This document shows, piece by piece, positions 44,672-62,051 of a stretch of DNA of 64,000 bases. Numbering within the stretch: position 1 is the first letter of the stretch; the number at the start of each line of letters is the position of its first letter. Source of the DNA: Streptomyces sp. WMMC940 (GTDB lineage: Bacteria > Actinomycetota > Actinomycetes > Streptomycetales > Streptomycetaceae); assembly GCF_027460265.1 (NCBI RefSeq), contig NZ_JAPZBC010000001.1, positions 4,754,001 to 4,818,000 of the forward strand, given 5' to 3'. The notes beneath the pieces are model-generated. The model worked only from the letters and a program-made list of their open reading frames with translations, was not told the DNA's origin and searched no databases. The translations under genes were made by a program, and so were the position numbers.

Positions 44672-44806
44672 GGAGGCAGCCGCGGCCGCGGTTGCCTCGT
44701 GGCCCGCGGACCGCGTGTGTCAGGATGGATCCGGCCGGGCTCGTTCCGGCAGCGGGGCGCCTGGGGGGTGGCCCGGCACGTACCACGGTGCACCAAGGGG
44801 GAGTGG

Positions 44807-45808
44807 ATGTACGGCAGTCGAGTCGGGCGCGCCCGATGGACGGCGGCCGCGATGGGGGCCGTCCTGCTGGTGGCGGGATGTTCCTCCTCGGACGGCGACG
44901 GCGACAAGCCCGCGGCCCAGCAGCCCAAGGCGACGGATCCGTACTGGGTGAACCCCGAGGGAAACGCGGCGAAGCAGGTGGCCTCGTACCTCGACGACGG
45001 TGACAGCGCGAGCGCCGAGCTGATCAAGAAGATCGCGGCCCAGCCGATGGGCGAGTGGATCGGCCCCGACGACCCGGAGGGCGAGGCGCGGAAGTACACG
45101 AAGGCCGCCGCGAAGGCGGACCGCGACGCCCTTCTGGTCCTCTACAACATCCCGCACCGTGACTGCGGCCAGTTCTCCAAGGGCGGTGCCTCGGACGGCG
45201 ACGCCTACCGCGCCTGGGTCGACAAGGTCGCCAAGGGCATCGGCGACCGCCGGGCCACCGTCGTCCTCGAACCGGACGCCGTGCTGCACCTGGTGGACGG
45301 CTGCACCCCGAAGGAGTACCACCAGGAGCGGTACGACCTGCTGAAGGGGGCCATCGAACGGCTCGGGCGACTCCCCGCGACCAAGGTCTACCTGGACGCG
45401 GGCAACGCGGGCTGGGCGGACCCGGGCTCCCTCCCGGATCCGCTGCGCCGGGCCGGCATCGACCAGGCCGACGGCTTCGCGGTCAACGTCTCCAACTTCC
45501 AGACGACCGAGGCCAGCAAGGACTTCGGCCGCAAGCTGTCCGCCATGGTCGGTGGGAAGCACTTCGTGATCGACACCAGCCGCAACGGCAACGGGCCGTA
45601 CACCCAGGGCGATCCGAAGGAGAACTGGTGCAACCCGCCGGGCCGTGCCCTCGGCGAGAAGCCCACGACGAAGACCGGTGATCCGCTCGTCGACGCCTAT
45701 CTGTGGGTGAAGCGGCCGGGCGAGTCCGACGGTGACTGCAAGGGTGGTCCCAAGGCCGGTGACTGGTACCCGGAGTACGCACTCGAACTGGCCCGCAACA
45801 CCGAGTAG
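44807..45808 (+). CDS. cslZ: GH6 endoglucanase lipoprotein CslZ
   Basis: 333 residues from the ATG at 44807 (GGGGGAG ahead). The lipobox LLVAGC places the lipidated cysteine at residue 25. The GH6 cellulase fold is visible: LVLYNIPHRDCGQFSKGGA, VVLEPDAVLHLVDGC with the catalytic aspartate, VYLDAGNAGW, and DTSRNGNGP. It converges on glxA; the same trio in S. coelicolor makes and trims a glucan at hyphal tips. CslZ is expected to cut the beta-1,4-glucan made by CslA. Confidence 0.9.
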   Translation: MYGSRVGRARWTAAAMGAVLLVAGCSSSDGDGDKPAAQQPKATDPYWVNPEGNAAKQVASYLDDGDSASAELIKKIAAQPMGEWIGPDDPEGEARKYTKAAAKADRDALLVLYNIPHRDCGQFSKGGASDGDAYRAWVDKVAKGIGDRRATVVLEPDAVLHLVDGCTPKEYHQERYDLLKGAIERLGRLPATKVYLDAGNAGWADPGSLPDPLRRAGIDQADGFAVNVSNFQTTEASKDFGRKLSAMVGGKHFVIDTSRNGNGPYTQGDPKENWCNPPGRALGEKPTTKTGDPLVDAYLWVKRPGESDGDCKGGPKAGDWYPEYALELARNTE

Positions 45809-45816
45809 CCGCACAC

Positions 45817-45863
45817 ACGACGGCGAAGGGGGCTCCCGCTGCGGGAGCCCCCTTCGCCGTCGT
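45817..45863. terminator. 23-bp perfect bidirectional terminator between cslZ and glxA
   Basis: Two 23-base arms pair without mismatch around one base (45840). It starts nine bases after cslZ and ends 20 bases before the glxA stop on the other strand. Confidence 0.9.
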
Positions 45864-45882
45864 GCCCGTTCGTCGTCCCGGT

Positions 45883-47835: not shown

Positions 47836-49772
47836 TTCTTACGTCCCCCAAGGGCGATCTGCATGGTCTGGTCCGCGGGGGCCCACTGGGGCTGCTGCTC
47901 GTGGGCGGCCGGCGACACGGCTTCGGAGGCCCCGCCATCCGTCCCCGGCTTCGCACGGCGCCGCCCCCTCCGCTTCTTCTTCTCCTCGCGGATCCCGTAC
48001 CGCCAGGCGAAGATGGGCGCCGCCGTGATCAGCAGGGCCAGGCCGGCCCAGGTGATCATCGCCGGGTGGTCGTGCCCGAACCAGAACGAGGAGACGAGCG
48101 AGCCGCCGAAGATCAGGATGAAGAAGAGGTGGATCCGGAACGTGCCGAAGAGCGTGTCCGGGCTGGAGGAGTCGCCCTTGGGCGTGACCACGAACTTGCT
48201 CTTGCGCCGCAGCGCGGCGTCCATCAGGGAGCGTGCGTAGATCGGCGCGGAGAGGGCGGACATCACCATGCCGGCCAGACCGCCGGAGCCCTCGGGCTCG
48301 TGGGGCGACACGTTGTGGCGGCGGTTCCAGATGTAGAGGCCGATCTGCAGGGCCGAGGCGTTGCCGTACAGCATCATCCAGATGGCCGGGTCGATCTGCA
48401 CGCCCGAGGCGCCCATGCCCAGGAACAGCGCACAGCTGAGGGCCGCCAGGATCCAGTTGAGGGCCGACATCGGGTAGAAGATGATCATCATGGTGTAGTT
48501 GAAGAGCTTGCCGGCCGGCAGTGTGCCGAAGCCCTTCCAGTACTGCTTGAGGATCGTCTCGTACGTGCCGCGGGACCAGCGCAGCTGCTGGGTGAAGAAG
48601 TCGGTCCAGGCGGACGGGCCCTCACCGACGGCCAGGACGTCCGGGGTGTAGACGGACCGCCACTTGTTGCCGGTCCCCGGGTTCTTGGCCCGGTGCATCT
48701 CGAAGCCGGTGGCCATGTCCTCGGTGATCGAGTCGTACAGGCCACCGATCTGCTTGATGGCGCTGATGCGCACGGCGTTGGAGGTGCCGACGAACATGGG
48801 GGCGCCGTAGCGGTTGCCGGCGCGCTGGATCAGGGCGTGGAAGAGGAACTGCTGGGATTCCGCGGCCTTGGTGACGAAGGTGTCGTAGTTGCCGTAGACC
48901 TGCGGGCCGATGACGAAGCCGACGTCCGGGTCGCGGAAGTACCCGAGCATCCGCTCCAGGTAGTTCGGCAGCGGTATGTGGTCGGTGTCGACGGAGGCGA
49001 AGAAGTCGTAGTCGCCGCCGTGCGCCTCGAGCCAGGCGTTGTAGTTGCCGTGCTTGGTCTTGGCCCGGTGGGCGCCTTTCTCCTGGTTCCACTTGGCTAT
49101 GCCCTTGCGGGAGAAGTGGTGGACGCCGAGCCGTGCGCAGACCTCCTTGACGGCCGGGTCGTCGCCCTCGTCGAGCAGCCACACGTGCATCAGCCCGCGG
49201 TGCCGGATCTTCACGGCCGCCTCGAGCGTCTTCGTGACCATCTCCAGGGGTTCCTTGCCCGGCACGAAGGAGGTGAGGAAGGCGACGCGGGTGCCGGACT
49301 CCGGCACGACGGGTATCGGGTCGCGGGCGACGAGTGTCGCGTGCGCGTTCGACAGGACGTTCATCGTGCGGAAGAGCTCGATCAGGCCGATCGAGACGAG
49401 CATGACGACGTCGAGCCACAGCAGCAGCTCGTCGTTCAGGTTGGGGTCGCGCTCCGTCCAGTGCTGCGGCTGCATCAGCCAGGCGAACAGGCCCAGCGAG
49501 ACCAGCGGCGCGGCCCCGAGGAGCAGAGCGGCCCGGACGCGGTGCGGCTCCTGCGACAGCAACGAGCGGTACTGCACCTTGTACGGTCTCGACGGGTCCG
49601 GCTGGGTCAGGGGACCGGCCAGCCGGCTGTAGTGCTCGTAGTCGTACCTCGGCAGCGCCTTCTTGGGGCGCAACCGATGGCCTCCCGTCCTGAGCTGCGG
49701 GGGAACCCGAAGCTGCGTGGTCCGGGAAGGGTCGTCGTCCTGCTGCCGGGCGCCGTTCGGCGTCGACGTCAT
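47832..49772 (-). CDS. cslA: CslA, cellulose synthase-like glycosyltransferase (GT2)
   Basis: 646 residues. Two N-terminal helices, a GT2 domain, then five or six C-terminal helices. Catalytic motifs are present: SVDTDHIPLPNY (DxD), ITEDMATGFEMH (TED) and QQLRWSRG (QxxRW). It polymerises a beta-linked glucan across the membrane and is needed for normal tip growth in S. coelicolor. The order cslA-glxA is one operon; cslZ converges on it. Confidence 0.93.
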   Translation of the reverse strand: MTSTPNGARQQDDDPSRTTQLRVPPQLRTGGHRLRPKKALPRYDYEHYSRLAGPLTQPDPSRPYKVQYRSLLSQEPHRVRAALLLGAAPLVSLGLFAWLMQPQHWTERDPNLNDELLLWLDVVMLVSIGLIELFRTMNVLSNAHATLVARDPIPVVPESGTRVAFLTSFVPGKEPLEMVTKTLEAAVKIRHRGLMHVWLLDEGDDPAVKEVCARLGVHHFSRKGIAKWNQEKGAHRAKTKHGNYNAWLEAHGGDYDFFASVDTDHIPLPNYLERMLGYFRDPDVGFVIGPQVYGNYDTFVTKAAESQQFLFHALIQRAGNRYGAPMFVGTSNAVRISAIKQIGGLYDSITEDMATGFEMHRAKNPGTGNKWRSVYTPDVLAVGEGPSAWTDFFTQQLRWSRGTYETILKQYWKGFGTLPAGKLFNYTMMIIFYPMSALNWILAALSCALFLGMGASGVQIDPAIWMMLYGNASALQIGLYIWNRRHNVSPHEPEGSGGLAGMVMSALSAPIYARSLMDAALRRKSKFVVTPKGDSSSPDTLFGTFRIHLFFILIFGGSLVSSFWFGHDHPAMITWAGLALLITAAPIFAWRYGIREEKKKRRGRRRAKPGTDGGASEAVSPAAHEQQPQWAPADQTMQIALGGRKK

Positions 49773-50295
49773 CTTTCATCCCCCCGCACGCCTGCTGGCT
49801 GCGTGATCGTTCGGTCGTGTCCGGACCGGGGCTCCCCTTGGCCAGCCGGTACCGGACGCATCAGTGGCAGGCCACCGTATCCGTAGACATAAGACGATGG
49901 TCTTCCGGTTGCATGATGCCCGTCTCCGCGTTCGTCCGTGAACGGGACCCCCACACCGGGCCAGTAGCGACGGGAGAATCCCCTCGAATCACCCCAAGTC
50001 GCAACTGTTTGAGCCCGCTGACCCCTTGGGGTCGCGGACTCTCAGGACAGGGTCCCGGAGCGGGGGACGTGATCGCAAGCGGATCCGGAGCCGCCGGGAG
50101 GCGCGCTGTCCGGGTTCCTCCGCACCGCTCCGCATCGGGGTGGAGGGTGGGTGTGAGGGTGGGAGGCGCGGAGCGCGTCCAATCTCTCTGGATGGGCTGT
50201 CCGATCAGGTTGGACGTCGGGCTTTCCGGTGCCTCCCCGCACGGTCGTTGACGGCGGTTTGGTCAACCGGCGTCCCAGCGGGAAGAATCCACCGC
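49773..50295. other. Upstream region of cslA and left edge of the island
   Basis: No convincing gene. The stretch must hold the cslA promoter. At 50247-50267 it has GTTGAC and GTCAAC, 9 bases apart, just before the HTH gene. From about 50280 it becomes the inverted-repeat copy. Confidence 0.55.
50247..50267. promoter_or_regulatory. Possible operator before the HTH gene
   Basis: GTTGAC and its complement lie 29 bases upstream of the GTG. This sequence is outside the duplicated segment, so the second HTH copy lacks it. Confidence 0.35.
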
Positions 50296-50860
50296 GTGGC
50301 CAACGCACTGCAGGAATTGGTGAAGAGCCGGCTGGAGCAGCAGGGCTGGTCCTACGGCGACGTGGCCCGGCGCGGGGGCGTCCCGCGTTCCACCGTGCAC
50401 CACCTGGCCACCGCCGAACGCGTCACCCGCATGCCGCAGCAGGCCACGCTCGAGGGCCTGGCCAGAGGACTGGAACTGCCCCTGGACTCCGTCCGCAGGG
50501 CCGCGGCCGAAGCCTGCGGGATCCACCTGTACTTCGAGGAGACCCCCGGCACACCCGCCGACCCCGAGGTCGCCACCCTCATCGCCAGCGTCCAGCAACT
50601 CTCCCCGGCCGACCGCCGCCACGTCACCGCACTCGTCGAATCCCTCCTGCGCAACACCCACCGACCCGACACCGGCGCAGACACCCACACCCACCCCGGC
50701 ACCGGCACAGACACCCACACCCACCCCGGCGCCGGCACCGGCACAGACACCGGCTCAGGACCCCGCACGGGCCACGACACCGGCACCCACCCCGGCACCC
50801 ACCAGAGCACGGACCCCCACCCCGCCACCGACTGAACCGGGCCCCGACGACATCCGGCCG
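50280..50860 (+). repeat. Outer inverted repeat IR1, left copy
   Basis: About 0.58 kb, almost identical to the reverse complement of 57178-57754. It spans the whole HTH gene and 25 bases beyond its stop, ending at CATCCGGCCG in both copies. The only clear length difference is in the HTHPGTG-coding tandem tract. Confidence 0.9.
50296..50835 (+). CDS. XRE-type HTH regulator with Thr/His/Pro/Gly repeat tail (copy 1)
   Basis: 179 residues from GTG (VANALQELVKSRLEQQGWSYGD). The helix-turn-helix is GWSYGDVARRGGVPRSTVHHLATAE, residues 18-42, followed by a helical middle (SPADRRHVTALVESLLR). The last 50 residues are a repeat tract of THTHPGTGTD type, low in complexity and probably disordered. A near-identical copy lies at 57203 on the other strand. 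The target genes are unknown; the right copy lies next to tRNA-Lys. Confidence 0.8.
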   Translation: MANALQELVKSRLEQQGWSYGDVARRGGVPRSTVHHLATAERVTRMPQQATLEGLARGLELPLDSVRRAAAEACGIHLYFEETPGTPADPEVATLIASVQQLSPADRRHVTALVESLLRNTHRPDTGADTHTHPGTGTDTHTHPGAGTGTDTGSGPRTGHDTGTHPGTHQSTDPHPATD

Positions 50861-51094
50861 GGCCGCAGGCGTCGACGGGCCGGATCGCGGTTTCCGGTGC
50901 GCGCCGGCGAGGTGCGGGCGGACGTGCCGTTTCGATGGGGGATCGGAGACTTCGGGCCGGTAGTGCGCATGGCGCATCCGTTTGATGCATTTGCTGGCGA
51001 AGTATCAGATAGCCCGGAAATGCGGGCGATTGGGGGTCTATTCTCGCCCCGCGGGGCGGGTGAACCCCCCGAAGCCTCCGGGAGAGGGGTGGAC

Positions 51095-51355
51095 GTGCTT
51101 GTCGTTCCAGGAGCGCTCGCGACCGCCGTCGTCCGTGACAGGACGGGAGAGCCGGTGGTGCTGCTGTCCGGTGAACTCCCCTCCGCCCTCACCGCGTCCG
51201 GTGTGGACGAGTTGCTCAACCTGGCCGCCGCCGTACTCGGGACGGAGGAACTGGAACTCTTCGGGCGCTGCCTCGCGGCACTCCGTTGCGGCGAGATGCT
51301 CCGGGAAACCCGTATCGAGGTCAGCGGAGCCGTACTGACCATCTACCGCGACTGA
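51095..51355 (+). CDS. Unknown 86-residue protein (copy 1 of inverted pair)
   Basis: Starts with GTG (VLVVPGALATAVVRDRTGEP) after GAGAGGGG. The rest (VVLLSGELPSALTASGVDELLNLAAAVL and so on, ending AVLTIYRD) is nearly identical to the protein encoded at 52155 on the other strand. The alternation of beta and helix suggests a small alpha/beta fold. I do not recognise the family. A longer in-frame opening from 50897 is not supported because the paralogue diverges there. Confidence 0.65.
   Translation: MLVVPGALATAVVRDRTGEPVVLLSGELPSALTASGVDELLNLAAAVLGTEELELFGRCLAALRCGEMLRETRIEVSGAVLTIYRD
51114..51350 (+). repeat. Inner inverted repeat IR2, left copy
   Basis: About 237 bases matching the reverse complement of 52159-52395 with, by eye, one base change. 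It covers most of the 86-residue coding sequence. Confidence 0.9.
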
Positions 51356-51440
51356 CCCGCGAACGGCAGCAGGCTCCCGGGAGCCGTCTCCGGGAGCCCA
51401 CGCCGACCGCCCGTCGGTTCGGGCGGCGCATCAGGCCGGA

Positions 51441-51758
51441 TCAGAACCGGCGACCGCAATCCCAGCCGTGTCCGGCGTGGTTGCGGTACCACCCGTAGGC
51501 GTCGTACCGGTGCGCCCTGTGTGCGGGGCGGCGTTCCCACAGGCGACGGCAGTCGCGGTCCCACCGGTTCCGGTGGCGGTCCCGGACATGGTGCCTGACG
51601 TACCGCTGACCGAGGTCGGTGCAGCGCTCCACGCCGCGGAACTGCTGTGCGGCGACGGGCGAATGGGCCGGCGCGGCGATGGCCGTGCCCGTCAGGGGAA
51701 TGGCGGCCGCGGTCGCGGTCAGGACCGCCGTCGCAAGGAGGCGTGCGAATGTTCTCAC
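51441..51758 (-). CDS. Small secreted Arg/His/Tyr-rich protein
   Basis: 105 residues from GTG at 51758 with GGAGAAAAACG ahead. Signal peptide ARLLATAVLTATAAAIPLTGTAIAAPA, cleaved near residue 30. The mature peptide of about 75 residues is strongly basic (RYVRHHVRDRHRNRWDRDCRR...) with three cysteines and many aromatic residues. It lies between the two copies of IR2. An antimicrobial or nucleic-acid-binding role is possible from composition, but there is no family match I can name. Confidence 0.65.
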   Translation of the reverse strand: MRTFARLLATAVLTATAAAIPLTGTAIAAPAHSPVAAQQFRGVERCTDLGQRYVRHHVRDRHRNRWDRDCRRLWERRPAHRAHRYDAYGWYRNHAGHGWDCGRRF

Positions 51759-52154
51759 CGTTTTTCTCCTGGTTCGAGGGATTTCTGGTGGCCCTCCGGA
51801 CCATACGCGGATCCAGTAACGGGATTCATTCGTGCATGCGAGCGGAGAGGTCTTGTCGGCGCATTGCCGACCCTGTTCCGAAAGCCGGGGAAACCGGGCC
51901 TGAGCTTTGCTTGGTGAGGGTTTCGCGAAATATGGCGGCGGTGTCTGAGAACACTCGCGAGGGTGACTCAACTGCGGCGTTTCGCACGGGTTTTGGGTGC
52001 GGGTACATAACGGCGCAAATTGCAACTCGGCTGCACCGGGTCCTGGGTTGAATAATTCCTGCGGCCCGTTGCGGCCGGAATCGGGAGCTGCCGGAATGCT
52101 CCGCCGTCGCACGGAAATCCGCCCCGAGTTGCGTGCAGTCGCTGCCCCCGTCGC
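51759..52154. other. 396-base AT-richer gap inside IR2
   Basis: Noticeably less GC-rich than the surroundings (for example the stretch near 52005-52065), with no coding frame I can support. It holds the promoter of the secreted Arg-rich protein. The composition suggests recently acquired DNA. Confidence 0.5.
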
Positions 52155-52415
52155 TCAGCTGCGGTAGATGGTCAGTACGGCTCCGCTGACCTCGATACGG
52201 GTTTCCCGGAGCATCTCGCCGCAACGGAGTGCCGCGAGGCAGCGCCCGAAGAGTTCCAGTTCCTCCGCCCCGAGTACGGCGGCGGCCAGGTTGAGCAACT
52301 CGTCCACACCGGACGCGGTGAGGGCGGAGGGGAGTTCACCGGACAGCAGCACCACCGGCTCTCCCGTCCTGTCACGGACGACGGCGGTCGCGGACGCCAT
52401 GGGGACGACAAGCAT
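52155..52415 (-). CDS. Unknown 86-residue protein (copy 2 of inverted pair)
   Basis: Starts with ATG (MLVVPMASATAVVRDRTGEP) after GAGAGGGG. Beyond the first ten residues it is almost identical to the copy at 51095. The last residue and flanking bases differ, so the duplicated unit ends at the stop codon. Function unknown. Confidence 0.65.
   Translation of the reverse strand: MLVVPMASATAVVRDRTGEPVVLLSGELPSALTASGVDELLNLAAAVLGAEELELFGRCLAALRCGEMLRETRIEVSGAVLTIYRS
52159..52395 (-). repeat. Inner inverted repeat IR2, right copy
   Basis: Partner of 51114-51350. The spacer between the copies is about 0.8 kb. Recombination between them would invert the segment with the secreted Arg-rich gene. Confidence 0.9.
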
Positions 52416-52759
52416 GTGCACCCCTCTCGCGGAGGTTTCGGGCGGTTCACCCGTCTTGAGGCACGAGAGGATAGCCATCAGGAGTCATGTCGTTGCCGGT
52501 GGGAATCGGCCGGATTGAGCCGATCGGGTGAGGCTCCCCACGGGCCGGCATCGGCTCCGTCCCCGCCCGTCACCTCTCCTGCCTGCGGTTTTGGTGGGCA
52601 TGGGCGGTCTTCGCCATGGCGGGCGGGATGTTCCGGTCCCTTGTCGGTGGCTCCGCGGAGTCCTACTGTCCAATCTCGTCAGACAGATCGTCCGGCATGG
52701 ATGGACGCGTTCGGGAACGGGCGCAGTCCGCCCATGCCCTTCGCGCAAAGGACCCACCC
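52416..52759. other. 344-base region upstream of the peptide genes
   Basis: No convincing gene. It lies between the divergent 86-residue protein and the first peptide gene, so it should carry the promoters of both. I see no certain -10/-35 pair. Confidence 0.5.
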
Positions 52760-52978
52760 ATGCTTGGCATGCGAGAACTGGACGCCGAGGCCGCCGCGGA
52801 GCTGCTGCCCGGGCGTGAGGCCCTGGGCCGGCTGCGGTTCAACTTCGTCAGGACCACGAGCGTGAGCGAGCGCATCGCCTACGTCGACGCCCACAACGAG
52901 TCGCTCGCGGCCAACGTCTGTTCGCCGGACGCCGTCGCGGCCTCCGAGGCGACCCAGTCCATCAGCGTCCGCCAGTAG
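52760..52978 (+). CDS. Tandem peptide gene 1 (candidate exported-peptide precursor)
   Basis: 72 residues from ATG at 52760; a second ATG at 52769 gives 69. The conserved part is AEAAAELLPGREALGRLRFN, then FVRTTSVSERIAYVDAHNESLAAN and a Ser/Ala-rich end closing in QSISVRQ. This copy has one cysteine (NVCSPDA) that the others lack. No Sec signal peptide is present. Small size, three tandem copies and the adjacent membrane protease point to a modified or processed peptide, with the acidic/leucine-rich N terminus as leader. Confidence 0.75.
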   Translation: MLGMRELDAEAAAELLPGREALGRLRFNFVRTTSVSERIAYVDAHNESLAANVCSPDAVAASEATQSISVRQ

Positions 52979-53008
52979 CGGCACTTCCTTCCCAGAGGGG
53001 TTTCCACC

Positions 53009-53224
53009 ATGAACGTCGAAGAGCTCGAGGCCGAGGCCGCCGCCGAACTGCTGCCCGGGCGCGAGGCCCTGGGCCGGCTGCGGTTCAACTTCGTCAGGAC
53101 CACCAACGTGAGCGAGCGCATCGCGTACGTCAGCGCCCACAACGAGTCGCTCGCGACCAACATCAACTCCCCGTACGCCGTCGCGGCCTCGTCCGCCGCC
53201 CAGTCCATCAGCGTCAGCCAGTAG
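53009..53224 (+). CDS. Tandem peptide gene 2
   Basis: 71 residues: MNVEELEAEAAAELLPGREA, the same LRFNFVRTT block, then NVSERIAYVSAHNESLATNI and a tail ending AQSISVSQ. GAGGGG precedes the ATG. Differences from copies 1 and 3 are concentrated in the first seven residues and in the NSPYAVAASSAA region near the C terminus, which would be the variable core if the N terminus is a leader. Confidence 0.75.
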   Translation: MNVEELEAEAAAELLPGREALGRLRFNFVRTTNVSERIAYVSAHNESLATNINSPYAVAASSAAQSISVSQ

Positions 53225-53255
53225 CCGGCGCTTCCTCCCGAGAGGGGTTTCCACC

Positions 53256-53471
53256 ATGAACGAAGACCAGCTCAACGCCGAGGCCGCCGCCGAACTGCTG
53301 CCCGGGCGCGAGGCCCTGGGCCGGCTGCGGTTCAACTTCGTCAGGACCACCAACGTGAGCGAGCGCATCGCCTACGTCAGCGCCCACAACGAGTCGCTCG
53401 CCGCCAACATCGACTCCCCGGACGCCGTCGCGGCCTCCGAGGCGACCCAGTCCATCTCGATCAGCCAGTAA
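53256..53471 (+). CDS. Tandem peptide gene 3
   Basis: 71 residues: MNEDQLNAEAAAELLPGREA, the shared LRFNFVRTTNVSERIAYVSA block, then HNESLAANIDSPDAVAASEA and TQSISISQ. The middle third is identical to copy 2. The alternating small/polar pattern at the end (A-x-S-x-A-x-x-S-I-S-I-S) would favour beta structure. The M50 protease gene follows 66 bases on. Confidence 0.75.
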   Translation: MNEDQLNAEAAAELLPGREALGRLRFNFVRTTNVSERIAYVSAHNESLAANIDSPDAVAASEATQSISISQ

Positions 53472-53537
53472 CGATCCCGGTCGTGTGCGGGCCGCGTTCT
53501 TGGGGGCGCGGCCCGCACCGGGAGGAAGAGCAGGACG

Positions 53538-55373
53538 GTGACCAAAAGCCAGAAGGTCCACCCTGGTCCCGTGGGGGCGGCGGCCTGCGACGCGGGCGAC
53601 GTGGCTCACCCGTACGAATACACGGAGACGCTGTTCCCCGTTCCGCGTCTCGGTGCGGGACTCCAGTTTCTCGGCGAGTACCAGGGGTCCGGCTTCACGG
53701 ACCGCAAGTACCTGGTCCGCCGAGGGGACGGGCAGGTGGTCCAGCTCTCCCGGTTGCTCTACCTGGTCGCCGAATCCATCGACGGCGTACGCGACACCGA
53801 GACCGTCTCGCACCGGGTCAGCGGGCGCTACGGACGGGAGATCAGCGCCGACAACATCGAGTACCTCGTCGAGCAGAAGCTCGAACCGCTCGGCATCACC
53901 GTCCCCTTCGGACAGGAGGGCGACCAGGTCGCCGGCCCCACCACCGACCTCCTCCTGGTCCTCAAGGGCCACCGGGTGATCTTCCGCGAGCGGCAGGTGG
54001 CCCGTATCGCCGCGGCGCTCGCCTGGCTGCACCGGCCACCGGTCGTGGTCCTGGTGCTGTCCGCGGCGCTCTGCGTGGACGTCTGGCTGTTCGCCGTCCA
54101 CGGAGCGATCGCGCCGGTGCTGCAGGTGCTGGAACAGCCTGTGCTGATGCTCGCCGTCTTCGCACTGATCGTGGCATCGCTGGTCTTCCACGAGTTCGGC
54201 CACGCCTCGGCGTGCAGGTACGGCGGCGCGCGCCCCGGGAGCATCGGCTGCGGCCTCTTCCTCATCTGGCCCTCGATGTACACCGAAGTCACCGATGTCT
54301 ACCGCATCGGGCGGGCCGGCCGGATCCGGACCGACCTGGGCGGGATCTACTTCAACGTGGTCTTCGTGCTGGGGCTCGCCCTGGCGTACGTCCTCACGGG
54401 CCAGCCCCTCTTCCTCGCCGCGATCTACCTCGTGCACTTCGAAATCCTGGAGCAGCTGCTGCCGGTGGTCCGGCTGGACGGCTACTACATCCTCGGGGAC
54501 CTCGCGGGAATCCCCGACCTCTTCGGGAAGATCAAGCCCATTCTGCGCTCCATGCTGCCGGGACGTCCGCCGTCCCCGGAGGTGGCCGGGCTGAAGCGGC
54601 CCGCGAGGATCATGGTCACCGCATGGGTGGTGACCATGGTGCCGCTGATCGCCGCCGAACTCGGCTACGTGCTGTGGAACCTCCCCCGCCTGCTCACCAC
54701 GAGCCTGCGCTCACTGGCGGAACAGGTGGCGGGGACCTGGTCCGCCTTCGCCGACGGCCAGTTCTCCGCCGGTCTCGTCGGGGTCGTCGGTAGCTTCATG
54801 CTCATCTGCCCCCTGGCCGGCGCGACCTACCTCGCCGTACGGCTGGTGGGCCGGCTCGTGAAGGTCATCGCCCGGGCCACGGAGGGCAACGCCCGGCTGC
54901 GGGTGGCCGTCTGGGGCGGGGTGCTGGTGGGATCGGGCGCGCTCTGCGCGGCGTGGCTGACCGGTATGACCCCGGAGCCGTTGCCGCGCCAGCCGCCCAT
55001 CGCCCCCATCCTCCAGCCCGGTGTTCCCACGGTCCGCCCGACGGCCGCGGCCCCCGGCGCGGAACGGCCCATCCCCGCCACCCCGGACCCGACCCGTCTC
55101 ACCGACCCACCGCCCGAGGCCCCCGCACCCGCGGCGACTTCCGGCGCCACCCCCGCCGGCCTGACCGCCACCAAGAGCGGCTCCCCGTCCGCGAGCCCCG
55201 TCACGGACGCGCCGACACCAGGGCCGACGAGCCCGACGCCGAGTCCGAGCCGTACTTCGGCGTCGCCTTCGGCCGACCCGAGCGCCTCGCCGACGCCGAG
55301 CACCACGCCGTCCGGATCCCCTTCGCCCTCGGTGACCCCCTCGGAGTCGCAGAGCGCGACCGAGGAGCCGTAG
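53538..55373 (+). CDS. Membrane M50 zinc protease with PqqD/RRE-like N-terminal domain
   Basis: 611 residues from GTG, with GGAGGAAGAG ahead. Residues about 55-122 (KYLVRRGDGQVVQLSRLLYL, then SHRVSGRYGREISADNIEYL) look like a PqqD-type peptide-recognition domain. The membrane part has HEFGH (H218, E219, H222) and the third ligand in LDGYYILGD (D314), typical of site-2 proteases and of peptide zinc metalloprotease proteins in RiPP loci. About ten helices are predicted by eye. The last 130 residues are a Pro/Ser/Thr-rich extracytoplasmic tail. It should bind and cut the adjacent peptides during export. Confidence 0.85.
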   Translation: MTKSQKVHPGPVGAAACDAGDVAHPYEYTETLFPVPRLGAGLQFLGEYQGSGFTDRKYLVRRGDGQVVQLSRLLYLVAESIDGVRDTETVSHRVSGRYGREISADNIEYLVEQKLEPLGITVPFGQEGDQVAGPTTDLLLVLKGHRVIFRERQVARIAAALAWLHRPPVVVLVLSAALCVDVWLFAVHGAIAPVLQVLEQPVLMLAVFALIVASLVFHEFGHASACRYGGARPGSIGCGLFLIWPSMYTEVTDVYRIGRAGRIRTDLGGIYFNVVFVLGLALAYVLTGQPLFLAAIYLVHFEILEQLLPVVRLDGYYILGDLAGIPDLFGKIKPILRSMLPGRPPSPEVAGLKRPARIMVTAWVVTMVPLIAAELGYVLWNLPRLLTTSLRSLAEQVAGTWSAFADGQFSAGLVGVVGSFMLICPLAGATYLAVRLVGRLVKVIARATEGNARLRVAVWGGVLVGSGALCAAWLTGMTPEPLPRQPPIAPILQPGVPTVRPTAAAPGAERPIPATPDPTRLTDPPPEAPAPAATSGATPAGLTATKSGSPSASPVTDAPTPGPTSPTPSPSRTSASPSADPSASPTPSTTPSGSPSPSVTPSESQSATEEP

Positions 55374-55452
55374 TCCGGATCGCCCCCCATCCACCTCTCC
55401 GGCCCCGACAGCCCCCTCCCGATTCCCCGTACGTCCGCAAAGGAGCATCCCG

Positions 55453-56139
55453 ATGACGCACCGAAAACCACGCACCGGCCACGGCGGCCGCAGAGCCGCA
55501 CGGTTCGGCATGCTCGTCGCCGCCTGTACGGCCGGCTTCGCCACGGCGAGCCCTGCCGGGGCGGCATCGTACGTGTCGACCGGCAACCGCCATGTCGGTG
55601 TCGCGGTGGACGAAGCGCACGCGAACGCCGGACCCAGGCACCGTTACGACTACGACGACGAGTTCGCGGTCCATGAGCTCGGAACGCGCCTCGGCGTCGG
55701 CGCGCGCAACAGGGCGGTCGCCCGTTCCGCGGGCTGCACGCTCGACAACCCGTGCCGCTCGGTCGCCCTGTCCTTCCAGGTCGTCACCGTCACCGGCACG
55801 ATCACGCGGCTCAACGCGGCGAACACCAGCCGTGCGGTCAACGACCACTGCGACGGCTGCCAGACGTTCGCGGGGGCCTACCAGTTCATCGTCTCCACCC
55901 CGCACTCGTTCACGCTGAGCCGCCCGGTCAGGAACGAACTCGCCCGGCTCGAAAGGCGACTGGCCGAACTGGAGCGCAGCCGCGAGCCGATCAGCACCGT
56001 CAGGACCCGTGCCGACTCCCTGGCCGCCGAGGTCGTGAGCCTGCTCAGGGGAGCGGTGGCGGCCGCGCCCCGCGGCGAGGCCGTCGACCCGCTGCAGAGC
56101 TTCCGGCCCACCGTCACCCTGCGGCGCCACATCGACTAG
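55453..56139 (+). CDS. Secreted cysteine-containing protein of the peptide locus
   Basis: 228 residues with GGAG ahead of the ATG. Signal peptide: basic start, then FGMLVAACTAGFATASPAGA. The mature part has CTLDNPC and CDGC cysteine pairs in a beta-rich domain (VALSFQVVTVTGTITRLNAA...AGAYQFIV), then a helical C-terminal part (RNELARLERRLAELERSREP). The block NAANTSRAVN echoes the AHNESLAAN block of the tandem peptides. No family I can name. It lies 79 bases after the protease on the same strand and is probably in its operon. Confidence 0.7.
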   Translation: MTHRKPRTGHGGRRAARFGMLVAACTAGFATASPAGAASYVSTGNRHVGVAVDEAHANAGPRHRYDYDDEFAVHELGTRLGVGARNRAVARSAGCTLDNPCRSVALSFQVVTVTGTITRLNAANTSRAVNDHCDGCQTFAGAYQFIVSTPHSFTLSRPVRNELARLERRLAELERSREPISTVRTRADSLAAEVVSLLRGAVAAAPRGEAVDPLQSFRPTVTLRRHID

Positions 56140-56289: not shown

Positions 56290-56583
56290 ATGAGTTACCC
56301 ACCCGAGGTGCGCCGTCAGGCCCTCGACCTGCTGGCCGTGGGCGAGCCCGTGAAGAAGGTCGCGGTCGACCTCGGCCTCAGCGAGCGGACGCTCTACCAG
56401 TGGCGGCGCAGATACCTGCCGCAACTGCGGCACCAGCGGTACTTCCCCGACGCGGGGACGGAACTCACGGCCGCGCGCAGACGCATCACGGAACTGGAGA
56501 CCGAGGTCGCCGTCCTCCGGCGCGCGACCGAGCTGCTGCGGGACGCGATGTCCCCAAAAGACGATTCGAGGCAGTACGCGTGA
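56290..56583 (+). mobile_element. IS3-family OrfA (HTH transposase subunit)
   Basis: 97 residues: SYPPEVRRQALDLLAVGEPV, then DLGLSERTLYQWRRRYL (helix-turn-helix), then a leucine-zipper-like helix ITELETEVAVLRRATELL. The reading frame is intact. OrfB begins at its stop codon in the -1 frame, the usual IS3 arrangement. Confidence 0.85.
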
Positions 56584-56903
56584 TGGCTCACGAGGGCTTG
56601 CCCGTGCGGATCGCCACGAGCGTCCTGGGGGTGACCGAGTCCGGGTACTTCACCTGGCGTTCCCGTCCTCCCTCCGCACGTTCCGTCCGTCACTCCTGGC
56701 TCACCGAAGTCATCTCCGCCATCCACGCCGCTTCGCACGGGACCTATGGATACCGGCGCATCCACGACGAACTGACTTCGCGCCACGGCATCGCGGTCAG
56801 CCACGGCACGGTTCAGCTCCTGATGCGCCGCGCCGGTCTCCAGGGTCTCTCCGCCGGCGAACGGCGCCGTACCCGGCCGACGCCAAAGAGGTCGCCGGCC
56901 TGA
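56583..56903 (+). mobile_element. IS3-family OrfB, truncated before the catalytic domain
   Basis: 106 residues of the OrfB N terminus (VRIATSVLGVTESGYFTWRS, HGTYGYRRIHDELTSRHGI: the HTH_21 domain), then unrelated residues and a stop. The DDE integrase core of about 170 residues is missing, so the element cannot transpose alone. Confidence 0.85.
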
Positions 56904-57177: not shown

Positions 57178-57754
57178 CGGCCGGATGTCGTCGGGGCCCG
57201 GTTCAGTCGGTGGCGGGGTGGGGGTCCGTGCTCTGGTGGGTGCCGGGGTGGGTGCCGGTGTCGTGGCCCGTGCGGGGTCCTGAGCCGGTGTCTGTGCCGG
57301 TGCCGGCGCCGGGGTGGGTGTCGGTGTCTGTGCCGGGGTGGGTGTGGGTGTCTGCGCCGGTGTCGGGTCGGCGGGTGTTGCGCAGGAGGGATTCGACGAG
57401 TGCGGTGACGTGGCGGCGGTCGGCCGGGGAGAGCTGCTGGACGCTGGCGATGAGGGTGGCGACCTCGGGGTCGGCGGGTGTGCCGGGGGTCTCCTCGAAG
57501 TACAGGTGGATCCCGCAGGCTTCGGCCGCGGCCCTGCGGACGGAGTCCAGGGGCAGTTCCAGTCCTCTGGCCAGGCCCTCGAGCGTGGCCTGCTGCGGCA
57601 TGCGGGTGACGCGTTCGGCGGTGGCCAGGTGGTGCACGGTGGAACGCGGGACGCCCCCGCGCCGGGCCACGTCGCCGTAGGACCAGCCCTGCTGCTCCAG
57701 CCGGCTCTTCACCAATTCCTGCAGTGCGTTGGCCACGCGGTGGATTCTTCCTGC
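57178..57754 (-). repeat. Outer inverted repeat IR1, right copy
   Basis: Partner of 50280-50860, in opposite orientation. The two copies enclose about 6.3 kb. Confidence 0.9.
57203..57736 (-). CDS. XRE-type HTH regulator with Thr/His/Pro/Gly repeat tail (copy 2)
   Basis: 177 residues from GTG at 57736. Identical by eye to the copy at 50296 through the helix-turn-helix and middle region. In the repeat tail one THTHPGT unit is altered and two residues are missing. The gene points away from tRNA-Lys. This may be the original copy, since the other lies at the far edge of the inserted block. Confidence 0.8.
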   Translation of the reverse strand: MANALQELVKSRLEQQGWSYGDVARRGGVPRSTVHHLATAERVTRMPQQATLEGLARGLELPLDSVRRAAAEACGIHLYFEETPGTPADPEVATLIASVQQLSPADRRHVTALVESLLRNTRRPDTGADTHTHPGTDTDTHPGAGTGTDTGSGPRTGHDTGTHPGTHQSTDPHPATD

Positions 57755-57937
57755 CGTGGGACGGGGTGACGCGTACGGGTGAGTCCGAGTGTATGCCGCA
57801 GGTGGGACGTCCTTCTCCTGCCGCCCGCCGTCCGGGGGTCTCCCGGCGACGCCCCCGGCGCCGGGCGGGCTTTCGCGCGTATGCGAAAGGGCGCCCTCGG
57901 AGGCCGAGGACGCCCGGATCAACGAACTGATCGCTGG

Positions 57938-58011
57938 TGCGCCGCCAGGGACTCGAACCCCGGACCCGCTGATTAAGAGTCAGCTGCTCTAACCAACTGA
58001 GCTAGCGGCGC
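57938..58011 (-). tRNA. tRNA-Lys (CUU)
   Basis: 74 nt on the minus strand with encoded CCA (57935-57937). The acceptor stem is GCGCCGC/GCGGCGC and the D arm GCTC/GAGC. The anticodon arm is GCTGA-CTCTTAA-TCAGC with anticodon CUU, and the T arm CGGGG-TTCGAGT-CCCTG. All four arms pair normally. Confidence 0.97.
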
Positions 58012-58164
58012 CTGCTGACCCGGAGAACTCTACCGGACCCCCTGGGATGCTCCTGACCATTTCCTTGCGCGTTCCGGCCTGTCGGATGGTCGTTTTTTCG
58101 CTTTGCTCCGTCAAAATGCGATTTGTCATGACGGAAGAGCGTGGTGGATCTGAAGGGGCAAGGG

Positions 58165-60141
58165 ATGACCGTTCCGGTGTTCGAGGAGTACGAGCCGGCC
58201 GGAGACTGCGTCTGCCCCGGCTGCGCCCAGCAGCGGCGGGAACGGGCCCGTGCCCTGCCGGTGCGTGCCGGAGGTCACCCGGCCGCGCACGGCGCCCGCC
58301 GCGCTCTCGTACTGGTCACCGCGGCGGGAGCGGTACTCAGCGGCGGGAGCGCGGGGGCCCTGGCCGATCCCGGAGCGGGGCGCTCCCCGGTGCCCGAGCC
58401 GGAGGCGGCGGCACCCCGGACCGCGCGGACCGGGGTGCCTGCCGCCGAGGCGGACACGGCGGCGCCACGCCGACCGGTCGGGGCACGGGCGGTCGGGGTG
58501 CGGGCGGCCCGGGCGCACCCCGTTCGGGCCGGGCGTGCCGGACTGGGGCACAACCGGCCGGAACGCGACCCGCTCCCCGTCCCCGCCCCGGCCCGGGTGC
58601 GGGCGGAGCGCGCAGGAACGGACGATCCCCCGGTGGGCCCCGGCGGCGCGGACCGCTCCCGTGGCGATCGTGTCCTGGCGGTGGATCCCGCACGGCCCGG
58701 GCGCGAACCCCGCCCCGACCCGGAGACCCCGCAGGGCGGCCAGGAACCGCTGCACGGCGGCCCGATCGCCGGCCCCGCCGGGACGGCCGGTCTGCGCAAG
58801 ATGGCCCGTGCCGACATCATGAACCGGGCGAAGCGCTGGGTGAACGCCAAGGTCCCGTACTCCATGAGCCGGTACTGGGCGGACGGCTACCGGCAGGACT
58901 GCTCCGGCTACGTCTCCATGGCCTGGCACCTCGCGGGCAACGAATGGACGGGCAGCCTGGCCCAGTTCGGCACGCGCATCGAACGCAAGGACCTGCAGCC
59001 CGGCGACATCCTGCTCTTCCACAATCCGAGCGATCCGTCCAAGGGCTCCCACGTCACGATCTTCGGCGGCTGGGCGGACAGCACCCGTACGAAGTACATC
59101 GCGTACGAACAGGCCAGGCCGCACACCCGCAGACAGACCACGCCCCTGGCCTACTGGAGCAACTCCGACCAGTACGTGGCCTACCGCTACAAAGGGCTGA
59201 AGGGCGTGGGCACCGCCGACGGGACGATCGCGGGGATCGGAGAGATCGGGTTCCCCGGGGTGGGGGTCTTCGCGCCCGGCGAGGACAACGCGTACGTCGC
59301 CCGGCTCGCGAGGCTGCTGGCGGAGCGGGGTTTCGGAAGCAACGACACGACCGGTCCGGGGTCGCGCTGGGGGGAGGCGCACCGGCGCGCCACCCAGGCG
59401 TTCCAGCACGCCCAGGGCTGGAGGGGTACGGAGGCGGACGGGGTGCCGGGACCGGACACCTGGCGCCTGCTGGTGAACGGCACGGGCAGGAAGGCGGCGC
59501 CCGGCGCGGCCGTGGCCGTGCCGAACGGGCCCGGACGACAGACGGGTGCGGTGACCGGGGCATCCGCGCCTGCAGCGGGCCCGACCGCGACCGGTCCGGA
59601 ACAGGTGCCGTCGTCCGCCGCGCGGCCCCCCGCCGGGGCGGGTGCCACGGCGGCGGGGTCCGATTCCGCGGGGGCCCGGCAGGCGGCGCCCGTGCCCGCC
59701 CCGGCCCCGGTGGCCGGGACCGCGTCCGGCGGTCGTGCCGCGGCTGCTCCGGCCCGGCCTGGTTCCGCCGTCCGGTCCGTCCCCGCCGGACCCCGCAGGC
59801 CACCTTCCGCAGCGGCCGCCCCCCGCCGGCCGGGCGCCGCGACGGCGACTCCGGCCGGTTCCCGGAAGCCGGCGCCCGGAGCCGCCGCCTCCGCGCCGGG
59901 TTTCCCGGGCCACGGACACTTCCGCCCCGGCGGCTCCGGCAGCTCCGGAAGGCATCTGGACACTCTCCGCCGGCAGCTGGTGAAGCGGGGCTTCGCCAGG
60001 CACTACTCCACCCGCCCCGGCCCGCGCTGGGGCGACGCGGACCGTCGCAGCGTCGAGGAGTTCCAGCGTGCGCAGGGCTGGCACGGCGCGGCGGCCGACG
60101 GCTACCCCGGCCCCGAGACCTGGCGGCGACTCTTCTCATGA
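58165..60141 (+). CDS. Secreted NlpC/P60-type hydrolase with two peptidoglycan-binding modules
   Basis: 658 residues from the ATG at 58165 (AAGGGGCAAGGG ahead). A short cysteine pair (CVCPGC) and a basic stretch precede a hydrophobic segment (ALVLVTAAGAVLSGGSAGALA). Then a disordered Pro/Arg/Ala region of about 150 residues leads to the NlpC/P60-like domain: YRQDCSGYVSMAWH with the catalytic cysteine and SHVTIFGGW with the histidine. Two PG-binding modules follow, both ending in the AFQ/EFQ-AQGW...ADG-PGP-TW pattern, separated by an Ala/Pro linker. It probably cuts peptidoglycan stem peptides. Its stop overlaps a possible ATG of the next gene. Confidence 0.85.
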   Translation: MTVPVFEEYEPAGDCVCPGCAQQRRERARALPVRAGGHPAAHGARRALVLVTAAGAVLSGGSAGALADPGAGRSPVPEPEAAAPRTARTGVPAAEADTAAPRRPVGARAVGVRAARAHPVRAGRAGLGHNRPERDPLPVPAPARVRAERAGTDDPPVGPGGADRSRGDRVLAVDPARPGREPRPDPETPQGGQEPLHGGPIAGPAGTAGLRKMARADIMNRAKRWVNAKVPYSMSRYWADGYRQDCSGYVSMAWHLAGNEWTGSLAQFGTRIERKDLQPGDILLFHNPSDPSKGSHVTIFGGWADSTRTKYIAYEQARPHTRRQTTPLAYWSNSDQYVAYRYKGLKGVGTADGTIAGIGEIGFPGVGVFAPGEDNAYVARLARLLAERGFGSNDTTGPGSRWGEAHRRATQAFQHAQGWRGTEADGVPGPDTWRLLVNGTGRKAAPGAAVAVPNGPGRQTGAVTGASAPAAGPTATGPEQVPSSAARPPAGAGATAAGSDSAGARQAAPVPAPAPVAGTASGGRAAAAPARPGSAVRSVPAGPRRPPSAAAAPRRPGAATATPAGSRKPAPGAAASAPGFPGHGHFRPGGSGSSGRHLDTLRRQLVKRGFARHYSTRPGPRWGDADRRSVEEFQRAQGWHGAAADGYPGPETWRRLFS

Positions 60142-60185
60142 TCCACAACTCCGATGTGCACCGAACCCGCGAGGAGGCGACCGCG

Positions 60186-62051
60186 GTGACCCCGACGACC
60201 CCCTACTCCGAGGACCCTCCGGGTCCCTCCCTCCCGCTCGGCCGGCTGACCTCCGCGTCGGTCGCCGTCCACAGCGCGGGGCTGCCCGTCAGGGGCAGCA
60301 CTGCCTCCGGCGGGCCCGAGCCCGAGGCCACGTCCGGCCCGGAGGCGCCGACGGCGTTCGGCCACGGCCGGGACGTGCGCGGCACCCCCGCCGTGCAGGG
60401 CATTCCGGATCCGTATGACGCCGGTGCGGTGCTCGGCGGCCGGGACGTGCGCGGCACCCCCGACGCGCACGGCACCGCCGGGCGTGGTGGCGCGCCCGCG
60501 GAGGCCGGACTGCCCGCCCCCGCCCAGGAGCTCCCTTCGGGGGGCGGGTCCGGGGCGGGTTCCGGAACCGCCTTCCCGCCCGGGCCCGGCGGCACTGCGA
60601 ACGGCGCCACCGACGCCCGCTCCCACCCGGGCGTCCTGTCCGAGGCGGGCGCCCCGTCCGAGGAGGGCGGGACGAAGCCCGGTGGCGCGCGGGACACCAC
60701 GCCCGCGACCGAGCGCGCCGAGCGGCAGTTCAGCGGGGCCGGCGGTCGCCGGACTGTCGTCATCGGCACCGATACGACCGGCGCCATCCCCGTCCACCTG
60801 CTCTACCGGGACGCCGTCGCGTCCGCCGGAGCGACCACCCGGGGCCCGGCGGGGGAGGCGGCCGCGGACCCGCGGACGGAGCCGGCCACCGGTGCGGACG
60901 CCACCCGCCCGCTCAACGGGACGTCCGCCAGCAAGGGGCCGGACGGCGGCGCACAGCCCAAGGACCGCTGGAGCGCCTTCGGCGTGAACGGGCTGACCAA
61001 GGACGTCGACGGCGACAGCGGCCCCGACACCATCGCCATGCCCCCGGTGGCGTCCGCCACCGGACGGCGGTCCACACCGGGCGCCGGCCAGGCCACCCGC
61101 CGGCCGGCACCCCCTCCGGACCCCCGGCTGATCGAGCGGCCCGGCCCGGTCCTGCCCGGCTGGGCGGCTCTGCTCGCCGGGGTCGTCTCCCTCGTCGCCT
61201 GCGCGGCCGTGCTGCACTGGGCGGGAGCCTTCCCGCCCGAGGTGACGACGCTCTTCGGAGTGGGCGAACGGCCCTACGGCGGTCTCGGGTTCGTGCACTG
61301 GGGCGTGCTCGCCGTGTCCCTGACGGTCGCGCTGTTCTCTCTCGGCGGGCTCGCGCGCGGCCGGGTCGGCCACGCCTGGGTGCTGACGCTGTACGGGGAG
61401 TACCGCGGCAGTGTCCGCCGCAGCGGTCTCATGTGGGTGAGCCCGCTGCTGCTCCGCCGCCGGGTGGACGTACGGTTGCGGCACTGGCGCAGCGAGCCCA
61501 TGCCGTCGGTCGACGCCGACGGCACCGCGCTCGAGGCCGTCGTCCTCGTCGTGTGGCGGGTCCGGGACACGGCCCGCGCCGTGCTCGGGGTCGCGAACCA
61601 CGAGTCGTACCTGAGGGAGCAGGTGGAGGCGGCACTGGCACGGGTGCTGTCCCAGATCCCGGCCGACGCCTCGGCGCCGGCCGCCGGCGGCGGTCCCGCG
61701 CTCGAACTCCGTCCGACGCTCCGCAACGCCGAGGCCGTCGGCGACGCCCTGACGAAGACGCTCGCGGCGGAGTGCGCCCCCATCGGGATCGACGTCTTCT
61801 CGGCGCAGCCGACGCGCATCGAGTACGCGCCCGAGGTGGCCGCGGCGATGCGCCGCCGTCGGGTCGCCGCCCTGGAGGCCGAGCGCCGCGACACCGTGTT
61901 GAGCTCGGTGGTCGACGCGGTGGACGACACGGTGCAACGGCTCACGATGCGTGGGCTGGTGGAGTTCGACGACTACGAGCGCAAGGCCCTCGTCCGCGAC
62001 CTGACCGTGGCGTTCTGCACGGCGAGGACCGGCGGTGCGGAGACCCCGTGA
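60186..62051 (+). CDS. SPFH/band-7 membrane protein with disordered N terminus
   Basis: 621 residues from GTG at 60186, chosen for GAGGAGG eight bases ahead; an ATG at 60138 overlapping the previous stop is the alternative. The first 315 residues are Gly/Ala/Pro/Thr-rich. Two membrane helices (GWAALLAGVVSLVACAAVL and VHWGVLAVSLTVALFSLGGLA) precede the SPFH domain (GEYRGSVRRSGLMWVSPLLLRRRVDVRLR...). SPFH proteins organise membrane microdomains. Coupling to a wall hydrolase suggests a local envelope-remodelling role. Confidence 0.8.
   Translation: MTPTTPYSEDPPGPSLPLGRLTSASVAVHSAGLPVRGSTASGGPEPEATSGPEAPTAFGHGRDVRGTPAVQGIPDPYDAGAVLGGRDVRGTPDAHGTAGRGGAPAEAGLPAPAQELPSGGGSGAGSGTAFPPGPGGTANGATDARSHPGVLSEAGAPSEEGGTKPGGARDTTPATERAERQFSGAGGRRTVVIGTDTTGAIPVHLLYRDAVASAGATTRGPAGEAAADPRTEPATGADATRPLNGTSASKGPDGGAQPKDRWSAFGVNGLTKDVDGDSGPDTIAMPPVASATGRRSTPGAGQATRRPAPPPDPRLIERPGPVLPGWAALLAGVVSLVACAAVLHWAGAFPPEVTTLFGVGERPYGGLGFVHWGVLAVSLTVALFSLGGLARGRVGHAWVLTLYGEYRGSVRRSGLMWVSPLLLRRRVDVRLRHWRSEPMPSVDADGTALEAVVLVVWRVRDTARAVLGVANHESYLREQVEAALARVLSQIPADASAPAAGGGPALELRPTLRNAEAVGDALTKTLAAECAPIGIDVFSAQPTRIEYAPEVAAAMRRRRVAALEAERRDTVLSSVVDAVDDTVQRLTMRGLVEFDDYERKALVRDLTVAFCTARTGGAETP

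What the first reader, a model, noticed from the sequence alone, without database searches (positions are those of the whole stretch)
52760..56139. Candidate undescribed peptide export/maturation system: three tandem peptides, RRE-M50 protease, secreted Cys protein
Three 71-72-residue peptides in tandem share a conserved N-terminal block (AEAAAELLPGREALG) and vary at the extreme ends. They are followed by a membrane M50 protease whose N terminus looks like a PqqD-type recognition domain. A signal-peptide protein with CTLDNPC and CDGC pairs comes next on the same strand. Peptide plus recognition domain plus M50 protease is the logic of known RiPP loci. Yet I see no YcaO, LanM, radical-SAM, methyltransferase or ABC exporter here, so the chemistry may be limited to proteolysis and assembly. 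The tail pattern could favour beta or amyloid-like assembly on the surface.
Basis: partly seen in the sequence, partly recalled or inferred. Interest (0 to 1): 0.85.

Follow-up and report, generated by a model that had tools for sequence, protein, structure and literature searches.

The report
Self-sufficient beta-repeat peptide maturation cassette
Three small repeat-type peptides, a membrane protease that probably recognises their front end, and a secreted cysteine-clamped protein form a conserved, apparently undescribed cassette with relatives across the actinobacterial phylum, and it probably builds something outside the cell rather than a decorated natural product.

Summary
In 295 genomes of the genus the peptide and the secreted protein occur in exactly the same 36; an M50 gene follows the peptides in 20 of 20 loci read and the secreted gene follows it in 18. 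The protease N-terminus models as an RRE. In the best 80 of at least 542 named relatives (ranked by a fused query, so biased to that form) M50 and Cys domain are ONE polypeptide (80 of 80), preceded by a longer precursor with the same leader (78) and repeat modules (80). No tailoring enzyme or exporter was seen to recur. Peptides, long precursors and the Cys domain share one register N-x2-[SC]-...-Q. Best reading: the RRE binds the leader, the site-2 protease removes it (and may export the core), and the Cys-clamped ectodomain receives or nucleates cores that self-associate as a beta repeat. Cleavage is likely; export and assembly are inferred. Tests did not place it with daptides, epipeptides, curli or rodlins. 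Ten searches of an open-access library found no description.

The parts
52667..52685 (+). Palindrome TGTCCAATCTCGTCAGACA, probable operator, 93 nt upstream of the first peptide
   Evidence: TGTC-N11-GACA upstream of the first peptide in 17 of 24 cassette starts of this genus (9 of 4800 mononucleotide shuffles); a narrower 19-letter form occurs once in the whole 7.67 Mb genome
52760..52978 (+). Precursor peptide A (72 aa; single Cys in the arch loop)
53009..53224 (+). Precursor peptide B (71 aa)
53256..53471 (+). Precursor peptide C (71 aa)
53538..55373 (+). RRE-M50 maturase (611 aa)
   Evidence: NCBIfam NF041824 82.9 bits (cut-off 300); relatives
53628..53927 (+). RRE-like domain, about residues 31-130 of the maturase
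   Evidence: AF2 bbb-aaa; VIA-align rows for solved RREs
53988..54959 (+). Site-2-protease (M50) membrane part; HEFGH at 54189-54203
   Evidence: (HExGH and the DGY Asp invariant in A6)
55005..55370 (+). Pro/Ser/Thr-rich C-terminal tail; the Cys domain follows here in fused relatives
55453..56139 (+). Secreted Cys beta protein (signal peptide read by eye, 4 invariant Cys)
55693..55794 (+). Arch 1 of the secreted protein (residues 81-114, C95-x5-C101 in the loop)
   Evidence: AF2 strands 81-93 and 102-114; weak hhalign self-offset
55807..55899 (+). Arch 2 of the secreted protein (residues 119-149, C133-x2-C136-x7-Q144), same register as the peptides
52155..52478 (-). 107-aa protein of unknown function, usual neighbour of the cassette
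   Evidence: relatives in 17 of 21 loci of this genus, the window counted
57203..57922 (-). XRE-type HTH protein, usual neighbour (second copy 50026-50835 +)
   Evidence: relatives in 20 of 21 loci, the window counted (the 6.6 kb contig L033 lacks it)

Best explanation
A dedicated maturation and assembly system for beta-repeat proteins. The precursors carry an N-terminal leader (by eye E[LI]..E....LP.[RK]E) that is bound in the cytoplasm by the RRE fused to an intramembrane site-2 protease; the protease cuts the leader off and, as is thought for EpeP, may also pass the core outward, since no exporter was seen to accompany it. Outside, the Cys-clamped beta domain (a separate secreted protein here; the protease's own C-terminal ectodomain in the fused relatives) presents copies of the same beta arch with Ser replaced by Cys in the loop, and receives, caps or nucleates the cores, which stack as beta-arch repeats into a surface or extracellular structure. 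Shown by sequence: the unit, the fusion, the leader, the shared register. Supported by fold prediction: RRE, beta-rich secreted domain. Inferred: leader cleavage by this protease, export, self-assembly, nucleation.
For: Unit: peptide and secreted protein in the identical 36 of 295 genomes. RRE-like fold. RRE, S2P and Cys domain in one frame: 10 of 20 sec-anchored distant loci and 80 of 80 named loci, RRE HMM 79 of 80 (the best 80 of at least 542, ranked by a fused query). Precursor upstream in those 80: leader 78 with the wider filter (67 with the strict one), arch module 80. Anchoring on the precursor alone: RRE-S2P in 16 of 18 stretches. Precursor families are homologous: window peptides vs distant short peptides E 3.6e-7, short vs long 3.5e-19. 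Alternating conservation in residues 39-51 and 59-71, joint permutation p 5e-5; none in 1-38, p 0.29. Both modules of seven aligned long precursors keep N0 S3 Q14 Q20 A26 A28 Q32 Q38. Secreted domain shares the register: arch profile vs fused domain 15.7, 0 of 150 column shuffles reach it; peptide core vs secreted profile 19.8, max of 200 shuffles 17.3; C-x2-C-x7-Q twice in 80 of 80 fused domains, 0 of 4000 shuffled sequences. Among weak fold rows of the secreted model are beta-solenoid or beta-helix proteins, FapC and CsgA included. A conserved core face is unusual for antimicrobial RiPPs (recalled). Precedent for an M50 thought to do cleavage and export: EpeP, passage in PMC10885120, which adds that deleting epeP did not fully abolish the product.
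Confidence: 0.5

Rival explanations
1. Secreted RiPP-like signal or antimicrobial: the protease releases a diffusible peptide, with modification (if any) by enzymes encoded elsewhere; the secreted protein is an immunity or receptor protein.
For: RRE plus M50 plus tandem short precursors is the layout of daptides (PMC10036551 passages) and the M50 matches daptide_HExxH and LiaK/YydH models below cut-off.
Against: No tailoring gene was seen to recur in 21 Streptomyces-type loci or 80 named loci; the core has one invariant face; long precursors are 208-331 aa from the leader on, with two modules.
Confidence: 0.2
2. Regulated-proteolysis sensor: RRE-S2P plus ectodomain senses metal or redox through its two CxxC pairs and processes an intracellular substrate protein whose fragment acts inside the cell.
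For: Four Cys columns at 100% and C-x2-C-x7-Q twice in 80 of 80 fused domains, a spacing also used by zinc sites (recalled); S2Ps are classical regulatory proteases (recalled).
Against: In arch 2 the CxxC pair sits at the arch-loop Ser positions of the precursors; precursors come as tandem copies or two modules; none gave a DNA-binding Pfam row.
Confidence: 0.14
3. Cross-linked envelope coat: cores are displayed and covalently joined through Cys or Gln by general enzymes, the secreted protein being the first acceptor, without amyloid-type stacking.
For: Terminal Gln invariant in 41 of 41 peptides; in ten loci and the window at least one peptide has a single Cys in the loop.
Against: No loop Cys in the peptides of L043-L052; no transglutaminase or sortase among the recurring neighbours scanned.
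Confidence: 0.1

Closest known systems
Daptide biosynthesis, RRE-S2P protease MpaP (PMC10036551, passages seen)
   Same: RRE fused N-terminally to an intramembrane site-2 protease, several precursors with a conserved leader motif; NF041824 matches 83-106 bits
   Different: No MpaB, C, D, M-type genes seen to recur; no C-terminal Thr; beta-type pattern rather than alpha-helical product; extra Cys ectodomain; score far below the 300-bit cut-off
Epipeptides (YydF/EpeX) with M50 protease YydH/EpeP (PMC10885120 passage; listing)
   Same: M50 releases, and is thought to export, the peptide
   Different: No radical SAM enzyme seen; LiaK/YydH model 35-48 bits vs cut-off 225; RRE and Cys ectodomain are additions as far as I recall
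Curli CsgA/CsgB and Fap FapC (recalled; weak fold rows)
   Same: Gln/Asn/Ser/Ala repeat register, subunit plus a related capping or nucleating partner
   Different: No curlin match; leader handled by RRE-S2P instead of a signal peptide; no CsgG-type channel expected in these envelopes
Streptomyces rodlins and chaplins
   Same: Small surface amyloid-type proteins in the same genus (listing); a rodlin pair just upstream of the cassette in 4 of 36 genomes, one clade in the tree
   Different: Neither peptides nor secreted protein match NF041022; rodlins not found in 5 of the 36 genomes and remote from the cassette in the window's own genome. Chaplin models were not searched by name; no chaplin row appeared

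Membership tests
RRE-dependent precursor maturation (RiPP-type) | bbb-aaa RRE fold | tested here: met
RRE-dependent precursor maturation (RiPP-type) | Leader-bearing precursor next to the RRE protein | tested here: met
   20 of 20, leader 78 of 80, 16 of 18 from the precursor side
RRE-dependent precursor maturation (RiPP-type) | Post-translational modification enzyme besides the protease | tested here: not met
   Families in 8 or more of 80 named loci, besides maturase and precursor: housekeeping types, in 1-3 named taxa each except a histidine kinase in 6 and an ORF antisense to the precursor in 7. Flanks of 6 kb only; unlinked enzymes not excluded
Daptides | RRE-S2P protease at equivalog level | tested here: not met
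   82.9-105.8 bits vs cut-off 300
Daptides | Invariant C-terminal Thr and oxidative decarboxylase/aminotransferase/methyltransferase | tested here: not met
   Terminal Gln in 41 of 41 window-type peptides; no such family among recurring neighbours
Epipeptides | M50 at LiaK/YydH equivalog level, radical SAM enzyme | tested here: not met
   47.6 bits vs 225; no radical SAM among recurring neighbours
Curli | Curlin repeat (Pfam) | tested here: not met
   No curlin row at E up to 1
Functional amyloid (any) | Cross-beta fibre of the secreted product | not testable with these tools
   needs protein; pattern evidence only
Rodlins | NF041022 match | tested here: not met
   No match for peptides or secreted protein; true rodlins in L036 score 181-185 bits

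The most novel reading that the evidence does not exclude
A phylum-wide, previously unrecognised route to extracellular beta-solenoid fibres in Gram-positive actinobacteria: RiPP-style leader recognition and a membrane protease, with its own Cys-locked copy of the repeat as tethered nucleator, replace the signal peptide, chaperones and channel of curli-type systems. It would be a two-gene amyloid-type machine.
Probability: 0.42. Interest if true: 0.94.

Novelty: new variant of a known kind. Interest (0 to 1): 0.84.

Why it matters
It would show that RRE-guided processing is used to build structures and not only to make natural products, would give many actinobacteria (Streptomyces-type genomes, Arthrobacter, Nocardioides, environmental mycobacteria and others) a shared surface or matrix component that no paper I found has looked for, and offers a very small genetic system (precursor plus one fusion protein) for testing how an intramembrane protease can cut and perhaps export a soluble peptide.

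Tried and rejected
Daptide, epipeptide, curli, rodlin and defence-system models were tried and not met or not matched. Weak rows treated as chance: two peptides to a viral capsid-associated family (E 0.012 and 0.017, below cut-off), the secreted protein to a PHROG (E 0.034), one long precursor to Gasdermin and Fimbrial_CS1 (E 0.35 and 0.63). Rodlin linkage was considered as functional evidence and down-weighted: 4 of 36 genomes, one clade. The cslA-glxA-type genes next to the window's cassette were considered and rejected as a link: not found in the 20 other stretches. The M50 could not be counted across the 295 genomes (searches failed), so its co-occurrence rests on fetched loci. PDB sequence search gave nothing for the M50 or the long precursors and only chance-level rows for the secreted protein (best E 0.09). 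Absence of fold rows is not used against any family.
Full report
1. What is there. On the + strand, 52760-56139 holds three tandem peptide genes (72, 71, 71 aa), an M50 gene (611 aa, GTG start) and a gene for a 228-aa protein with a signal-peptide-like start, with gaps of 30, 31, 66 and 79 bp. Pfam and NCBIfam name none of the peptides or the secreted protein; the M50 gets 82.9 bits from the daptide protease model (cut-off 300) over residues 57-328 and 47.6 bits from the LiaK/YydH model (cut-off 225).

2. It is a unit. The genome is a 7.67 Mb one whose closest named proteins are from Streptomyces. Among 295 genomes of the genus, 36 have the peptide and the same 36 the secreted protein; the sets are identical. 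36 of 41 secreted-protein genes have a peptide within 6 kb; the other five are on contigs without a peptide hit. In 20 loci read at length (20 of the 36 genomes), peptides are followed by M50 in 20 and by the secreted protein in 18. Counting the window, an XRE-type HTH gene is near in 20 of 21 loci and a 107-aa protein in 17 of 21. A palindrome stands upstream of the first peptide in 17 of 24 cassette starts; a narrower form of it occurs once in the whole genome.

4. The secreted protein corresponds to an ectodomain. A profile of it hit 26 of 394 genomes of the class. Of 20 distant stretches read, 19 have RRE plus S2P (L100 does not), and in 10 all three parts are one frame of 745-1098 aa. The 80 are the best for a fused query, so they over-represent the fused form. 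In a tree of 63 RRE-S2P rows (every third named one), the fused form (37), the window's type (18) and the other split type (8) are each one side of a branch (100/99, 100/100 and only 90/58 support).

5. Precursors run through the family. Upstream of the maturase lie 2-3 tandem peptides of roughly 67-96 aa (starts uncertain) in L092, L094-L097 and L101, or a single longer protein in L103-L111: 15 of these 20 stretches. L093, L098 and L099 begin at the maturase, L100 has no maturase, and L102 shows no precursor in the region searched. In the 80 named loci the leader is found in 67 by a strict filter and 78 by a wider one (L115 starts inside the precursor, L151 shows a module only), the arch module in 80. 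Searching with the long precursor alone hit 18 of 396 genomes of the phylum, 15 of them outside the window's class; of 18 stretches then read (17 genomes), 16 have RRE-S2P and 11 a Cys domain; of the seven without one, five end within 0.8 kb of the maturase or before it and two (L220, L221) lack it in the stretch. The window peptides are homologous to the short ones (E 3.6e-7) and these to the long ones (3.5e-19); the long ones hold two modules homologous to each other (E 1.8e-21).

6. One register in peptide, precursor and ectodomain. In 41 peptides residues 39-51 and 59-71 alternate conserved and free positions (joint p 5e-5 by permutation; no alternation in 1-38). Counting from N51 the invariant positions are N0, S3, A8, S10, Q14, I16 and Q20, with A12 nearly invariant. 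Seven aligned long precursors keep N0, S3, Q14, Q20, A26, A28, Q32, Q38 in both modules. In the secreted protein N130 is 0, C133 is 3, C136 is 6, Q144 is 14. C-x2-C-x7-Q occurs twice in 80 of 80 fused domains and at least once in 66 of 66 Streptomyces-type proteins. hhalign finds this register unaided: peptide core vs secreted profile 19.8 (max of 200 shuffles 17.3), full peptide 19.3 (2 of 200 as high), secreted vs itself offset 38 at 10.6 (E 0.78); precursor arch vs fused domain 15.7 (0 of 150), vs Streptomyces-type domain 12.0 (1 of 150). With the peptide-core HMM against 366 ORFs of the loci (the family's own included) plus 66 added secreted proteins, 36 of 75 secreted rows rank above the first decoy and 39 do not (best 14.2 vs 4.0 bits); they are one family, so this is one observation. 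AlphaFold2 places strands 81-93, 102-114, 119-131, 137-149 at high confidence with the Cys pairs in the loops between. Conservation alternates in strands 81-93 (p 0.019) and 119-131 (p 0.003) but not in the other two. Fold rows are weak; many are beta-helix or solenoid proteins as I recall them (SufB/SufD, UreD/UreH, bactofilin, ice-binding, FapC, CsgA), others are not (MALT1, ribokinases, Cas1).

7. How it probably works. Shown: a conserved set of leader-bearing beta-repeat precursors, an RRE-S2P and a Cys-clamped domain. Besides maturase and precursor, families in 8 or more of the 80 named loci are an S9 peptidase (23 loci), acetate kinase, phosphate acetyltransferase, GNAT, oxidoreductase, isocitrate lyase, HSP20 and lipid-transport types in 1-3 taxa each, a histidine kinase (11 loci, 6 taxa), one unnamed family and an ORF antisense to the precursor; no exporter, no tailoring enzyme, within 6 kb. 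Likely: RRE binds the leader and S2P removes it. If the separate form is exported by its N-terminal signal, which is read by eye and modest in the window protein, the fused form should also place this domain outside. Inferred: the core crosses the membrane with the help of the protease (EpeP is thought to do both, though its deletion did not fully abolish the product; PMC10885120 passage) and assembles on the domain. A conserved core face, tandem or duplicated modules and a related partner fit assembly better than a toxin or signal.

8. Known or not. Ten literature searches (listings only) in an open-access library found no description. RRE-Finder, its 2025 successor, a review of leader proteases and the daptide paper were seen as passages; the first two do not contain the term M50. 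Subscription papers and supplements were not searched.

Noticed in passing
window 44582-49772: GH6, GlxA-type oxidase and cellulose-synthase-like GT2 genes (Pfam; the cslA-glxA type locus as I recall it) lie 3 kb upstream of the cassette; not found in the 20 other stretches, so probably a coincidence of this genome.
   Followed up: partly
L036-L039 (G035, G018, G257, G219); L036:5898-7012: A pair of rodlin genes (NF041022, 181-185 bits in L036) 1.2-2.3 kb upstream of the first peptide on the same strand; 4 of 36 genomes, one clade.
   Followed up: yes
window 50026-52478 and 57203-57922: The XRE gene and the 107-aa gene are each present twice around the cassette; L034 and L035 also have two of each.
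   Followed up: no
window 56290-56903: A small HTH_Tnp_1-type gene follows the secreted gene. Relatives follow the secreted gene in L033, L034, L035, L043 and L047, and follow a lone peptide gene in L040-L042: it may be a domesticated IS3-type fragment.
   Followed up: partly
L095, L096, L101, L210 upstream of or beside the peptides: Small ORFs without the leader but with an arch-like stretch (e.g. L101 NVVADVNAVVATSGDTASSSTTTTVTQ) near the peptide array.
   Followed up: no
window 52760-52978 and L033-L042: At least one peptide per locus carries a single Cys in the arch loop beside the invariant Ser; peptides of L043-L052 have none.
   Followed up: no
L040 6128-6340, L041 4199-4411, L042 10150-10362: A lone second peptide gene lies 6-9 kb from the cassette, with its own HTH and XRE neighbours.
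   Followed up: no
window 58141-62051: A PG_binding_1 protein and a Band_7/SPFH protein follow the tRNA-Lys at 57935-58011.
   Followed up: no
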